From assembly GCF_019598945.1 (NCBI RefSeq), contig NZ_CP080598.1:3720001-3784000 (forward strand): DNA of 64,000 bases, written 5' to 3'. This document shows, in pieces, positions 54,807-60,028 of this stretch. Below the pieces are notes generated by a model that saw only the letters and a program-made list of their open reading frames with translations, made no database searches and had not been told where the DNA came from. Position numbers and translations under genes: made by a program. Position 1 is the stretch's first letter; each line of letters starts with the position of its first letter. The stretch is from Sphaerospermopsis torques-reginae ITEP-024 (GTDB lineage: Bacteria > Cyanobacteriota > Cyanobacteriia > Cyanobacteriales > Nostocaceae).

Positions 54807-56000
54807 ATGAATACTCAGGGAATAGAAAATCAGCAAAATTTGTCATGGTCTTTTTGGCCTATTTTACCTCTGTATCCCTACGGAAAAAGAAAGACTTTAT
54901 GCCGAGAAATTATCAAAGATACCCTATGGATATTTGATCAATTACAAGGCATTTTGTACACAATTGTACCAGTTCGTATGACCATAATTAAGCTACAGGA
55001 AGGCGGACTTTTAGTTTATGCACCTGTAGCACCCACCCCAGAATGTATCAATTTAGTAAAGGAATTGGAACAAAAACATGGGGAAGTAAAATATATAATT
55101 TTACCTACTAGTTCCGGTTTAGAACATAAAATATTTGTCGGTCCTTTTGCCAGAAAATTTCCCCAGGCTTTAGTTTATGTTGCTCCCCATCAATGGAGTA
55201 TTCCTTTTAATCTTCCCCTCAGTTGGTTAGGTTTTCCGCAAAAACGGACATTATTTTTATCAGTAAATCATCAAAATAACCCCTTTGGTAATGAATTTGA
55301 ATATGCTATTTTAGATATCAATTTAGGTAAAGGTTCTTTCCAAGAAGTTGCATTATTACATAAACCATCTCGCACTTTATTATTAACAGATACCATACTT
55401 TCTATTACTCAAGAACCACCAGAAATTTTACAAATAGATCCCTATCCTTTACTATTTCATGCTAGGGAAAATGCACAAGAAACAATTACAGATAATGCTG
55501 AAAACCGTCATCGTGGTTGGCAAAGAATAGCTTTATTTGCAATTTATTTTCGTCCCAGTGCAGTCAAAATTTCTCAACTTGGGGAAATTTGGAAAGATGC
55601 CAAACAAGCACCTGATCGTTCACATAAAGCATACTTTGGTTTTTTCCCCTTTAAATGGGATGAAAATTGGCAAGATACCTTTACAGCATTATCTGGTAAT
55701 GGTCGTCCTTTTGTTGCCCCAATTTTACAAATTCTCATCCTTCCTCAAGGAGCAAGAGAAGCAATAGAATGGGCTGATAAAATTGCAACTTGGGATTTTC
55801 AACAAATAATTTCTTGTCATTTTGATGCACCTATTAAAGCTACTCCTGAACAATTTCGACAAGCATTTAGTTTTTTAGAACAGCAACCAAAAGCAAGTTA
55901 TCAGCAACCTTTATTAAAGGAAGATTTGCGTTTTATTCAAGAATTAGAAGCTAGTTTAGTTAAACGTGGTATTGCTACACCTCAAAAGGAAAGGGTGTAA
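54807..56000 (+). CDS. DUF4336 protein
   Basis: This 397-residue protein matches the cyanobacterial DUF4336 family, which has a metallo-beta-lactamase-like core: GGLLVYAPVAPTPECINLV, YIILPTSSGLEHKIFVGPFARKFP (split here), APHQWSIPFNLP, DTILSI. No complete HxHxDH metal site is visible, so catalytic activity is doubtful. The gene stands alone. Confidence 0.8.
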   Translation: MNTQGIENQQNLSWSFWPILPLYPYGKRKTLCREIIKDTLWIFDQLQGILYTIVPVRMTIIKLQEGGLLVYAPVAPTPECINLVKELEQKHGEVKYIILPTSSGLEHKIFVGPFARKFPQALVYVAPHQWSIPFNLPLSWLGFPQKRTLFLSVNHQNNPFGNEFEYAILDINLGKGSFQEVALLHKPSRTLLLTDTILSITQEPPEILQIDPYPLLFHARENAQETITDNAENRHRGWQRIALFAIYFRPSAVKISQLGEIWKDAKQAPDRSHKAYFGFFPFKWDENWQDTFTALSGNGRPFVAPILQILILPQGAREAIEWADKIATWDFQQIISCHFDAPIKATPEQFRQAFSFLEQQPKASYQQPLLKEDLRFIQELEASLVKRGIATPQKERV

Positions 56001-56060
56001 TAAATCTCGTAAATTAGCAATTAAGTAATTATTATTTTGTATGAAGCTTGATTTATTGTA

Positions 56061-56071
56061 GACTATATGTC
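56061..56071 (+). promoter_or_regulatory. Controller-type operator upstream of the methyltransferase (O_M-like)
   Basis: GACTATATGTC has the same form as the two 11-mers in front of the controller gene (58269-58294) and lies 33 bases before the methyltransferase start. A single operator here is the arrangement known in C.Esp1396I-type systems, where the controller represses the methyltransferase. Confidence 0.6.
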
Positions 56072-56103
56072 ACAATGAAGACAAACTTTATATAAATTAT
56101 TCA

Positions 56104-57297
56104 ATGCAAGGAACACAACTTTCTTTTTTACCTAACGAGGATAATAGTCATCCTAACAAAAAACAAAAAAAACCGAAGTTAGGACGTTATGAGCGTATTC
56201 AGCGTCAACTAGATGAAGATAATTCTGATCCATATAAAATATTTATTGATGTTAATACCCCACAAATTTCATTATCTCAATATAATTTTGTGGATCTGTT
56301 TTGTGGTGCAGGGGGAATTACCCAAGGGTTATTCCAAGCAGGAGTTACACCCTTAGCTAGTGTAGAAATTAGTCCCATTGCTTCTGCAACTCATCAAAAA
56401 AATTTCCCTAACTGTCATCATTTCTGTGGAGATATTGAACAATTTTCTCCCCAAGAATGGCTGCAAAAAATAGGTTCACCTGAAATTAATGTTGTGGTTG
56501 GTGGTCCACCATGTCAAGGATTTTCAGTAGCAGGAAAACGCGATCCTAATGATCCTAGAAATAGGTTATTTTATCAATTTGTCCGGGTAGTTTCGGAAAT
56601 ACGTCCTTGGTATGTAGTCATGGAAAATGTACCAGGGATTTTAACAATACAAAAAGGGGATGTAAAAACAGCAATTATTGAAGCTTTTGAATCTATTGGT
56701 TATCCTCATGTATCTGTAGCGATTTTAGAATCTGCTGCTTATGGAGTACCACAAATTCGCCCAAGAGCAATTTTTATTGCTAACAGATTTGGAATGCCAA
56801 ATCCCTATCCTCAAGCACAATTAAAACCAGAAGAATATAAACCTATAGAATCAGGAATTTCTGATTTACCAGAATATACTCCCATACCAGAAATTAATCA
56901 TGAATGGACTAAACATTCACAGGAATACATGGAACGTTTAGCAAAAGTTCCTCCTGGTAGTTCTTTATATGAAAAATACGCTGATGCTTTCAAACGACAA
57001 TATCCTGGTAAACCTAGTATGACTGTAAAAGAAAATCATGGTGGTACACATATTCACCCTTATTTAAACCGTGTGATTTCCGCTAGAGAAATGGCCAGAT
57101 TACAAACATTTCCTGACTCATTTATTTTTGCAGGTACTATGAAAAAAGCAATGTGGCAAATTGGTAATGCTGTTCCACCACGTTTAGCTGAATGTATTGG
57201 TTATGCACTAATTCCTTACTTAAATGATATTGCGATTAACACCAAAAAACCTGTTAATTTACATCATTTTGAACAATCTGAGATAGTTTTTGGTTAA
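56104..57297 (+). CDS. DNA (cytosine-5) methyltransferase of a type II system
   Basis: This 397-residue C5 methyltransferase has motif I DLFCGAGG at 64-71, the catalytic Cys137 in GGPPCQGFS, ENVPG at 174-178, and motif X QIGNAVPPRLAE near the C-terminus. The target-recognition stretch is around residues 250-320. The N-terminal 60 residues are a charged extension. Its 3' end overlaps the convergent endonuclease gene by 44 bases. With that gene and the controller it forms a restriction-modification system. The recognition sequence cannot be read off. Confidence 0.93.
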   Translation: MQGTQLSFLPNEDNSHPNKKQKKPKLGRYERIQRQLDEDNSDPYKIFIDVNTPQISLSQYNFVDLFCGAGGITQGLFQAGVTPLASVEISPIASATHQKNFPNCHHFCGDIEQFSPQEWLQKIGSPEINVVVGGPPCQGFSVAGKRDPNDPRNRLFYQFVRVVSEIRPWYVVMENVPGILTIQKGDVKTAIIEAFESIGYPHVSVAILESAAYGVPQIRPRAIFIANRFGMPNPYPQAQLKPEEYKPIESGISDLPEYTPIPEINHEWTKHSQEYMERLAKVPPGSSLYEKYADAFKRQYPGKPSMTVKENHGGTHIHPYLNRVISAREMARLQTFPDSFIFAGTMKKAMWQIGNAVPPRLAECIGYALIPYLNDIAINTKKPVNLHHFEQSEIVFG

Positions 57298-57994
57298 GTG
57301 CATTACGCCAAGTTTCAAAATCATACCACCCACAACCAATACAACCTTCCTCAGCTTCATCACCTCGTTGATGTTGGGAAGGCCAATCTTCACTTCCTTG
57401 ATACCAGAATTTAATCCCAAAAGGTGTACCACGTTTACCAGTTTTAATACAGCGTTCACAACTTCTTGATTTTAAAAGATTGTGATTTCCAGAAGCATCT
57501 TTTTTGAGTAATTGAAACTTTTTTCTAATTTCTTCTTCACTCATAGACGTTAAATGTGGAGCTTCACTTTCTCCCCAACGTTCCATAGGAAAACGATGGT
57601 CAATGACTAACTCATGCTTTTCTCTTTGTCTTTGTTCTATGACATCTGTATATGAATAAATGTCAAGAATTTTCTTAACTAAAGCAGCAGGTATATTAGC
57701 AGATGAATTAGCTGATTTTATTTCTCCTGTCCAACGATCTCCTAAACGTATTTGCTGACAAGTTAAGCAATAATTCCTTTCTGTTTCAATTACTAAACCA
57801 GGACGACTTCTTGTACCCCTTTGTAAACCTTGAATACCTCCACCACCTGCATATTGAGTTGATCCTATATTTTTTCCTTCACATTCTCGACAATGCCATT
57901 TTTGGTCTGATAGAAGATTAAAAACTTTTAACTGAGTTGAGTTTTGTCTGAATTGAGATTTAATAGTTTCTACTAGATTTCTTTGGTTTGTCAC
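57254..57994 (-). CDS. HNH-type restriction endonuclease
   Basis: This 246-residue protein has an HNH (beta-beta-alpha-metal) core: Asp132-His133 in VIDHRFPMERW, Asn172 in GNHNLLKSRS and the Cys179-x2-Cys182 pair. Two further zinc-type pairs (Cys35/Cys38, Cys76/Cys79) lie before it and Cys217/Cys220 near the end. Placed six bases after the controller gene and convergent with the methyltransferase, it is best explained as the cognate endonuclease. It overlaps the methyltransferase 3' end. The activity is inferred. Confidence 0.8.
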   Translation of the reverse strand: MTNQRNLVETIKSQFRQNSTQLKVFNLLSDQKWHCRECEGKNIGSTQYAGGGGIQGLQRGTRSRPGLVIETERNYCLTCQQIRLGDRWTGEIKSANSSANIPAALVKKILDIYSYTDVIEQRQREKHELVIDHRFPMERWGESEAPHLTSMSEEEIRKKFQLLKKDASGNHNLLKSRSCERCIKTGKRGTPFGIKFWYQGSEDWPSQHQRGDEAEEGCIGCGWYDFETWRNALNQKLSQIVQNDVN

Positions 57995-58000
57995 TTTATT

Positions 58001-58246
58001 TTATCTTTTATCAGCTTCAATTTCGAGATTTTGTAGCAGAACAGAAACACTAATACCTAAGCCATCTGCAAGACTAACAAGCGCAGTTAAAGAGGGGTTT
58101 CTCACTCCACGTTCTACACCAGAAATGTATGTGCGGTCTAAGTTAGCACGTAGTCCTAACTCTTCTTGAGAAATTCCTAGCTCTGTTCTGCGTTGTCTGA
58201 CTAGATAACCTAAAGCATTAAGAATCTTTTGTTTTGATTTATCCAT
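58001..58246 (-). CDS. Restriction-modification controller protein (Xre-type HTH)
   Basis: This 81-residue protein is an Xre helix-turn-helix (RTELGISQEELGLRANLDRT, then YISGVERGVRNPSLTAL). Its size and place directly in front of the endonuclease gene are those of C proteins, which delay endonuclease expression until the DNA is methylated. A C-box lies 23 bases upstream of its start. Confidence 0.88.
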   Translation of the reverse strand: MDKSKQKILNALGYLVRQRRTELGISQEELGLRANLDRTYISGVERGVRNPSLTALVSLADGLGISVSVLLQNLEIEADKR

Positions 58247-58268
58247 CTGACAATTTTCAATGTCTATG

Positions 58269-58294
58269 GACTATCAGTCTACGGACTATGTGTC
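58269..58294 (-). promoter_or_regulatory. C-box (O_L/O_R) in front of the controller gene
   Basis: Two 11-mers, GACTATCAGTC (58269-58279) and GACTATGTGTC (58284-58294), are separated by four bases. The 11+4+11 layout with GACT/AGTC half-sites is that of C.AhdI- and C.Esp1396I-type operators. It lies just upstream of the controller start and should give both activation and self-repression. Confidence 0.75.
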
Positions 58295-58354
58295 ACATTG
58301 CCAGGCATCATCACCTAACTATTAATTTGCTTGCTACTTATTGGTTAATACTAA

Positions 58355-60028
58355 TCATGATCCATTTTTATTTGCAGCAATAGGCATTCTCCAACCAGTA
58401 CCAAAAGCACGATCAGTAATTTTCAAACCTGGTGCTGCTTGACGGCGTTTAAATTCAGCAATAGAAACCAGTTTTAACACCCTATTTACTATTTCTTGAT
58501 CATGACCTGCTTTAACTATTTCCTCTGCTGATTGATGTTTATTAATCAACCGTGCCAAAATATCATCTAAAATGTCATAAGCTGGCAAAGAATCTTGATC
58601 CACTTGACCAGGTTTTAACTCTGCGCTAGGCGCTTTAGTAATGATATTTTGGGGAATAATTTCTTTTTGATTATGAGTATTTAACCAATTACAAATAGAA
58701 TAAACACGGGTTTTTGGTACATCTGCAATGACAGCTAAACCGCCATTCATATCACCATAAAGGGTACAATAACCAACCGCCATTTCTGATTTATTGCCAG
58801 TAGATAAAAGCAGATGTCCAAATTTATTAGATATCCCCATTAATAAAGTACCACGAATGCGAGATTGAATATTTTCCTCCGCAATACCAAATTCTGTACC
58901 TGTGAATAATTCAGATAATGTATGATCAAAACTTTGCATTAATTCCCCAATGGGTAAAATTTGCGTTTTAATTCCTAAATTCTCCCCTAATTTTAAAGCA
59001 TCACTAACAGAATGTTCGGAACTATAAGGAGAAGGCATTAATACACCTAAAACATTTTCTTTACCTAATGCAGTCGTCGCAATAGCAGCAACTAAAGCGG
59101 AATCAATACCACCACTTAACCCTAAAACAACTTGAGAAAAACGGCATTTTTTCACATAATCTCGCACACCTAAAACCAAAGCGTGCCAAATTTCCTCATC
59201 TTCCGATTCATACAAGTTACCAACATAATTTAACTGCAAATCTCGCGTTTGTTTATCAAATTCAACAGTCAAAAAATCTGTTTCAAAACCTTTAGCACGA
59301 CAAATAATTTCACCTTGATTATTTACAGCAAAACTGCGCCCATCAAAAATTAAATCATCATTTCCGCCAACTTGATTAGTATAAATAATTGACTGCTGAA
59401 AATTTACTGCACTATGTTTTAACATAGCTTCCCGTAAATTTTGCTTACCAACGGTATAGGGAGAAGCAGATAAATTGACAATTAAATCTACACCTAAAAT
59501 TGATAAATCAGAAATGGGATTAACTGGATAATGACGTTTACCCCAAAATTCCTCATCATTCCATAAATCTTCGCAAATAGTCACACCAATATTGATATCA
59601 TCTAAAGCGAAATAATTAGCTTGTAACCCTGGTTCAAAATAGCGGTTTTCATCAAATACATCGTAAGTTGGTAATAGTCGCTTGTGAAAATATTGTTTAA
59701 TTTTTCCTGCTTCTAACAAAGCAATACTATTAAATAAAGTTTTACCACCTGTAATATGAGCATCTTTGTTTTTAACAGCAGTTCCTACTAAAACAGCTAA
59801 ATTAGGTGGTAAATCTTGAGCTAGTTTTTTTAATGTGATATCCATTGATTTCACAAAACTAGGATTTAATAATAAATCCCGTGGTGGATAACCACATAAA
59901 GAAAGTTCTGGTGTTAATAATAAACGGACATTATTTGCTGCTGCTTGTTGTGCAGTTTCCAGGATTTTTTGAGCATTTCCTGTTAAGTCACCGATAATAG
60001 GGTTAAGTTGGGCAATTGCAATTTTCAT
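58355..60028 (-). CDS. nadE: Glutamine-dependent NAD+ synthetase NadE
   Basis: This 557-residue protein makes NAD from nicotinate adenine dinucleotide. The N-terminal glutaminase (carbon-nitrogen hydrolase) domain has the Glu in TPELSLCGYPPRD, Lys in HKRLLPTYDVFDE and Cys in VTICEDLWN. The C-terminal synthetase domain has the ATP loop LGLSGGIDSALVAAI and STGNKSEMAVGYCTLYGD. It is the last gene of a cluster pncB-nadD-nrtR-nadE. Confidence 0.97.
   Translation of the reverse strand: MKIAIAQLNPIIGDLTGNAQKILETAQQAAANNVRLLLTPELSLCGYPPRDLLLNPSFVKSMDITLKKLAQDLPPNLAVLVGTAVKNKDAHITGGKTLFNSIALLEAGKIKQYFHKRLLPTYDVFDENRYFEPGLQANYFALDDINIGVTICEDLWNDEEFWGKRHYPVNPISDLSILGVDLIVNLSASPYTVGKQNLREAMLKHSAVNFQQSIIYTNQVGGNDDLIFDGRSFAVNNQGEIICRAKGFETDFLTVEFDKQTRDLQLNYVGNLYESEDEEIWHALVLGVRDYVKKCRFSQVVLGLSGGIDSALVAAIATTALGKENVLGVLMPSPYSSEHSVSDALKLGENLGIKTQILPIGELMQSFDHTLSELFTGTEFGIAEENIQSRIRGTLLMGISNKFGHLLLSTGNKSEMAVGYCTLYGDMNGGLAVIADVPKTRVYSICNWLNTHNQKEIIPQNIITKAPSAELKPGQVDQDSLPAYDILDDILARLINKHQSAEEIVKAGHDQEIVNRVLKLVSIAEFKRRQAAPGLKITDRAFGTGWRMPIAANKNGS

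What the first reader, a model, noticed from the sequence alone, without database searches (positions are those of the whole stretch)
56061..58294. C-controlled restriction-modification system with operators on both units
The controller gene has a double 11-mer operator (11+4+11 with GACT/AGTC half-sites), and the methyltransferase has a single related 11-mer (GACTATATGTC) 33 bases before its start. This reproduces the C.Esp1396I logic: two sites for C/R and one for M. The C-R unit and M are convergent with overlapping 3' ends, which could add antisense control.
Basis: partly seen in the sequence, partly recalled or inferred. Interest (0 to 1): 0.68.

Follow-up and report, generated by a model that had tools for sequence, protein, structure and literature searches.

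The report
C-protein-controlled restriction-modification system, Esp1396I type
A cyanobacterium carries a DNA-cutting defence enzyme, its protective methylase and a small regulator whose three predicted binding sites resemble those of the well-studied Esp1396I system; the arrangement is a real but ordinary member of a known kind.

Summary
The window carries a convergent type II restriction-modification system: C-5 methyltransferase M (56104-57297, +), restriction enzyme R (57254-57994, -) and controller C (58001-58246, -). C has two GACNNNNNGTC boxes in an 11+4+11 layout; M has one. These are the only GACNNNNNGTC sites in the window, and the exact double operator is unique in the 5.25-Mb genome. 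All 33 C upstream regions compared (window included) keep the double operator. A -35-like TAGACT overlaps the proximal box, with a -10-like hexamer 17 bp on, 6 nt before ATG. The M box is variable: exact in 17 of 32 M upstream regions, decayed in place in 3, not found in 12. C matches C.Esp1396I (1.4e-11) and keeps its DNA-contact residues R35, T36, Y37, R46. The Esp1396I logic (activate then repress C/R; repress M) is the best reading, inferred and not shown. Antisense control through the 44-bp 3' overlap has no support: 8 of 28 rows lack it. Recognition sequence unknown; R may be an HNH nuclease, on weak evidence. New member of a known kind.

The parts
56104..57297 (+). M: DNA (cytosine-5) methyltransferase, 397 aa
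   Evidence: Pfam DNA_methylase 6.2e-68; NCBIfam dcm 6e-56; PADLOC MTase_II 1.4e-120
57254..57994 (-). R: type II restriction endonuclease, 246 aa, GTG start; Cys pairs C35/C38 and C76/C79 in the N-terminal half, IDHRFPM block and CxxC pairs in the C-terminal half
   Evidence: PADLOC REase_II PDLC03537 5.6e-154, residues 1-242; 24-sequence alignment; weak Pfam ICEA hit in 9 of 24 members, best 0.0015
58001..58246 (-). C: controller protein, 81 aa helix-turn-helix
   Evidence: HTH_3 3.3e-15; PADLOC Control_protein 2.7e-16; C.Esp1396I chain 3clc_A 1.4e-11, best row 4fn3_A 5.2e-12
58284..58294 (-). distal operator OL, GACACATAGTC, preceded by TGT
   Evidence: conserved in relatives
58269..58279 (-). 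proximal operator OR, GACTGATAGTC, 4 bp (CGTA) from OL, overlapping the proposed -35
58253..58281 (-). proposed C/R promoter: -35-like TAGACT (58281-58276), 17 bp, -10-like GAAAAT (58258-58253), 6 nt before the C ATG, so the transcript is likely leaderless
   Evidence: mean -10 match over 33 regions peaks at spacer 17 (3.85 of 6, against 1.06-2.45 at the other nine spacings tried)
56061..56071 (+). single operator OM, GACTATATGTC, followed by ACA (reverse complement of the TGT beside OL)
56048..56076 (+). proposed M promoter: TTGATT (56048-56053), 17 bp, CACAAT (56071-56076); OM fills most of the spacer and touches the -10
   Evidence: the -10 is weak and variable, and spacer 14 scores as well as 17

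Best explanation
A type II restriction-modification system timed by a C protein in the Esp1396I manner. On entry into a cell M is made at once from its own promoter, while the C/R promoter (imperfect hexamers) is weak. Slowly accumulating C dimers fill OL and recruit RNA polymerase to the C/R promoter, giving positive feedback; at higher levels a second dimer binds OR cooperatively, covers the -35 and shuts C/R down. C also binds OM inside the M promoter and lowers M. Shown here: genes, operators, their conservation and their fit to promoter positions. Inferred: C binding, activation, repression, and that R and M are active on the same site.
For: C aligns without gaps to C.Esp1396I over residues 8-74. 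The PDB chain numbering runs three ahead of the paper's (my inference); allowing for this, R35, T36, Y37 and R46 correspond to window R38, T39, Y40 and R49, all invariant in the 16 C proteins aligned. In Esp1396I T36A abolishes measurable binding and R46A weakens it about 30-fold (PMC4041747, passages). Published Esp1396I oligos contain TGTGACTTATAGTC (OL) and TGATTATAGTC (OR), with specific contacts to GAC and an outer TG (PMC3758141, parts 1 and 2 of 3 read); here OL with its flank reads TGTGACACATAGTC. GTGAC is present in 33 of 33 C upstream regions (it was the alignment anchor and every row held it), TGTGAC in 32 of 33 (L043 has GGTGAC). Convergent C/R and M with OL, OR and OM is the stated Esp1396I arrangement. 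Conservation is low upstream of the operator block and mixed downstream. The one cyanobacterial relative with R and M on an uncut stretch but no C within it (L022) also lacks boxes before R and M.
Against: No binding, transcript or methylation data. The consensus promoter scan picked neither proposed promoter; the window hexamers match 4 of 6 each. The M -10 is ambiguous: over 19 rows spacer 14 scores 3.0, the same as 17, and spacer 20 scores 2.79. 12 of 32 M upstream regions have no box, and the nearest relative L006, whose C protein is identical, has a decayed one (GATTATATATC). Window C has Ala where Esp1396I has S52; there S52A costs about five-fold in affinity.
Confidence: 0.85

Rival explanations
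1. C controls only the C/R operon; the M box is a passive leftover or is too weak to matter, and M is constitutive.
For: M box not found in 12 of 32 and decayed in 3 of 32 M upstream regions, including the nearest relative with an identical C; the M box has no partner site.
Against: In 16 regions (window included) the box sits 27-33 nt before the aligned M start, and in 14 of those 16 a TTGA-type hexamer begins 13 nt before it. It is kept between Microcystis and Nostocales rows; the Microcystis M proteins are about 76% identical to the window's. Background is 0.0008 per 120 bp. A single site is what Esp1396I uses.
Confidence: 0.12
2. The 44-bp overlap of the convergent 3' ends gives an extra antisense or collision control between M and C-R transcripts.
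For: Overlap of 20-53 bp in 20 of 28 rows with readable 3' ends; no terminator-like site found in 55950-58400.
Against: Overlap absent in 8 of 28; compact gene packing explains it; no sequence feature points to regulation.
Confidence: 0.08
3. The boxes are chance matches and the HTH protein is an unrelated XRE regulator.
For: GACNNNNNGTC on its own is common: 5.2 expected per window.
Against: Exact double operator once in the genome and kept in 33 of 33 C upstream regions; C.Esp1396I is the best solved-structure match.
Confidence: 0.01

Closest known systems
Esp1396I restriction-modification system (C.Esp1396I)
   Same: Convergent C-R and M; two operators before C and one before M; GAC/GTC boxes with outer TG; same DNA-contact residues.
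   Different: R and M were not compared with the Esp1396I enzymes; host is a cyanobacterium and the genes are on the single 5.25-Mb contig, whereas Esp1396I is plasmid-borne; M operator varies between relatives; R has no detectable relative of solved structure.
AhdI system (C.AhdI)
   Same: Convergent C-R and M; leaderless C transcript reported for AhdI (PMC5333194, passages) and predicted here.
   Different: In AhdI M represses its own promoter (PMC11736437, passages); here a C box lies in the M promoter. C.AhdI is a weaker match, 4.5e-10.
Cyanobacterial C-REase fusions of the PvuII group
   Same: C-regulated systems reported from Anabaena, Gloeocapsa and Oscillatoria (PMC3850674, passages).
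   Different: There C and R are fused and R is PvuII-like; here they are separate genes. R was not compared directly with R.PvuII but has no solved-structure match.

Membership tests
C-protein-regulated type II restriction-modification system | Small HTH controller gene directly upstream of, and co-directional with, the R gene | tested here: met
   6 nt between the C stop and the R start; PADLOC Control_protein and REase_II hits
C-protein-regulated type II restriction-modification system | Two tandem C operators before C, the proximal one overlapping the -35 | tested here: met
   33 of 33 regions with the 11+4+11 layout; exact OL GACNNNNNGTC in 32 of 33 and exact OR in 30 of 33; the -35 position itself is inferred
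Esp1396I-type circuit | Single C operator within the M promoter | tested here: met
   Box present in the window, promoter position inferred; over all regions 17 of 32 exact, 3 decayed, 12 not found
Esp1396I-type circuit | Convergent C-R and M units | tested here: met
   convergent in 34 of 34 rows with R and M placed after duplicates are removed (L039 and L053 are one genome). In Ruminococcus L032, not in that count, only a weakly similar methyltransferase (24%) lies downstream, co-directional with R
Esp1396I-type circuit | C activates then represses C/R and represses M | not testable with these tools
   Needs binding or transcription assays
Type II restriction-modification | R and M act on the same DNA site | not testable with these tools
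   Specificity not known; family models only
HNH nuclease of the IceA/NlaIII kind (for R) | Significant match to the ICEA model or HNH fold | tested here: inconclusive
   ICEA at E<=1 in 9 of 24 members, best 0.0015; window 14.7 bits against a cut-off of 24; model too poor for a fold search, mean pLDDT 61; no solved relative. That NlaIII belongs with IceA is recalled.

The most novel reading that the evidence does not exclude
One cyanobacterial R-M family keeps the C/R switch essentially fixed while direct control of M by C is a detachable module: likely present early, lost or eroded several times, once (L006) under an unchanged C protein. This would be a natural experiment on whether M repression is needed for safe establishment or only tunes the M-to-R ratio.
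Probability: 0.45. Interest if true: 0.42.

Novelty: new member of a known kind. Interest (0 to 1): 0.27.

Why it matters
Quantitative work on C-timed systems rests on a few cases (Esp1396I, AhdI and EcoRV in PMC11736437, passages). This family offers about thirty cyanobacterial versions with the same C/R switch and a variable M operator, useful for testing models of M-to-R balance. In itself the system is ordinary.

Tried and rejected
Structure of R: the alignment-based model had mean pLDDT 61, with residues 115-144 and 164-227 below 50, so no fold search was run. Profile search against solved structures gave nothing up to E 1. Specificity of M: plasmid relatives reach 45% identity and are annotated only generically in the rows listed; one match (Mycoplasmopsis cynos, 40%) overlaps a gene named 'UpaP162 family type II restriction enzyme', but no paper holds the term UpaP162I; no recognition site is claimed. 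Viral or plasmid origin: no relative of R in the phage records or viral contigs; two versions of one Methanosphaera plasmid record match 58% of it at 37%. A C regulon elsewhere in the genome: the only other double site needs one mismatch; ORFs around it were listed but not searched. Background scoring was inflated because its random pieces included the real boxes; one search replaces it. Tree of M (32 rows): the box label (17 rows) needs 8 changes, starred branches force 5, shuffled mean 10.9, 22 of 500 shuffles as low; 'none' (12 rows) needs 5, starred branches force 2, 0 of 500 as low; the 3 decayed rows need 3 (500 of 500). Absence is clustered, but the number and direction of changes are not fixed.

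Literature: searches (listings and abstract starts) showed no paper on this system; the library holds only openly licensed papers and does not hold the 2009 Esp1396I transcription paper. No restriction-enzyme database was searchable; the strong PADLOC model match suggests the R family is already catalogued.

Full report
Setting. The window lies in a single-contig 5.25-Mb genome, at G000:C1:3720001-3784000. The nearest relative of the system with a named record is Sphaerospermopsis kisseleviana NIES-73, R 95% and C 100% identical. Its two neighbour genes (relatives of the 54807-56000 ORF and of the NAD-synthase-like ORF at 58355-60028, name recalled) are those of the window; none of the other 29 loci shows either neighbour in the DNA held, up to 5 kb a side and often less. 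The upstream ORF was also sought in 20 other genomes: 18 have a relative, and among the 20 best-match stretches fetched (1.5 kb flanks, the window's own included) only the window's and that of the same-genus genome show the R-M genes beside it; that ORF has paralogues, so orthology is unsure. The system therefore seems to sit at different places in different genomes, as expected of a horizontally moving R-M system (inference).

Genes. M is a C-5 cytosine methyltransferase; R matches one PADLOC restriction-enzyme model over residues 1-242 of 246 and has no significant Pfam, NCBIfam or PDB match; C is a small HTH protein. R begins with GTG after a 6-nt gap from the C stop; by aligned starts, C and R overlap by a few bases in most relatives, with a 169-nt gap in L047. 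In 24 aligned R proteins C35, C76 and C79 are invariant (C38 becomes His in L020-L022, L024 and L043), as are I131-M137, R139, W140 and Cys pairs 179/182 and 218/221. With the weak ICEA hits this suggests, but does not show, an HNH nuclease with zinc sites.

Operators. See the observation check for coordinates and chance rates. Searches gave 54 loci. Four (L002-L005) are paralogous C genes and were left out; 50 carry some part of this system. Eleven of these were dropped by hand before counting: L001 and L036 (the window itself), L037, L038, L041, L042, L044, L050, L052 and L054 (judged the same genomes as named-record loci by equal match values) and L051 (same place as L045). The 39 left plus the window gave 33 C upstream regions (31 distinct) and 32 M upstream regions (30 distinct over the last 80 bases), window included in each. 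These are regions, not genomes: L010 and L035 are two C regions of one assembly, and some genomes are split over two or three loci (L023/L025/L033; L039/L053). Starts are aligned starts, extrapolated by a few codons in some rows (for example L012, L026, L027, L028, L047).

C side. All 33 have both sites at 11+4+11. OL reads GACACATCGTC in 23, other GACNNNNNGTC forms in 9, and GACACATCGAC in 1. OR is exact GACNNNNNGTC in 30 and not in 3 (L012, L019, L047). The spacer is CGTA in 28, CATA 3, TATA 1, CGTG 1. Conservation is near complete from ATGTGAC to the last GTC and low on the upstream side. TAGAC at the start of OR serves as a plausible -35; the best -10 lies at spacer 17, with 4 or more matches of 6 in 29 of 33, and 6 nt from it to the aligned start in 26 of 33 (5, 7 or 8 in the rest). 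A leaderless C transcript is therefore likely; that is reported for AhdI (PMC5333194, passages).

M side. With a matrix made from C-side boxes only, and 120 bp searched per region, 17 of 32 M upstreams carry an exact GACNNNNNGTC as best site. In 16 it lies 27-33 nt before the aligned start, in 14 of them behind a TTGA-type hexamer; in the 17th (L047, the most diverged) it lies 51 nt before, ahead of a TTGACA. Three more (L006, L011, L020) have a decayed box at the same place. Twelve have none: L012, L014, L015, L017, L019, L022, L026, L029, L030, L031, L040, L049. Ten of these twelve still have C; L022 has no C in the 5 kb held upstream of R (only matches at E 0.69 or worse), and L017 is cut by the contig end. 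L022 has one GACNNNNNGTC site on its stretch, at 2496, not before R or M. In the M tree the absences cluster. Because Microcystis and Nostocales share an alignable promoter-box arrangement, an early box with later losses is my preferred reading; gains or exchange cannot be excluded.

Mechanism. The match of C to C.Esp1396I, the conserved contact residues and the operators make the published logic the best transfer: a C dimer at OL recruits polymerase, a second dimer at OR represses, and C at OM represses M (PMC4041747 passages; PMC11736437 passages). None of these steps was measured here.

3' overlap. M and R overlap by 20-53 bp in 20 of 28 rows with readable 3' ends and by nothing in 8 (L009, L024, L027-L031, L047) (L012, L039/L053, L046, L048 and L049 left out because a gene is disrupted or cut). 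No terminator-like site was found between 55950 and 58400. There is no evidence of an antisense function.

Literature and novelty. See Tried and rejected for the searches. The system is a further member of the C-controlled kind; no paper seen describes it, but R is already modelled in PADLOC. The variable M operator is the only feature of more than routine interest.

Noticed in passing
L002, L003, L004 (own genome, C1 near 151.8 kb, 2625.5 kb, 1180.3 kb): Three further control-protein genes, each beside a predicted type II restriction enzyme and a methyltransferase or part of one; none has a GACNNNNNGTC site on its 3.2-kb stretch, so the genome seems to hold four C-type systems, presumably with different operators.
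   Followed up: partly
L039/L053, L045, L046, L048, L049: R is interrupted, frame-broken or cut short in these relatives while C and its double operator remain; in L046 and L049 M is short too.
   Followed up: partly
R residues 1-130 versus 131-235 (alignment A1); L020, L021, L024, L043: The N-terminal half of R is more diverged than the C-terminal half (L043, 26-column blocks: 40-73% in blocks 1-5, 77-92% in blocks 6-9, 67% in block 10), with C38 changed to His; recombination of the N-terminal part or looser constraint.
   Followed up: partly
L022: Cyanomargarita relative has R and M but no C in the DNA held and no boxes before either gene: apparent joint loss of controller and operators.
   Followed up: partly
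L006 upstream of M: M box changed symmetrically from GAC...GTC to GAT...ATC although C is identical to the window's.
   Followed up: no
L032 4335-5705: Ruminococcus relative has two R-like stretches side by side (57% and 33% identity), a weakly similar methyltransferase downstream on the same strand, and no C of this kind.
   Followed up: no
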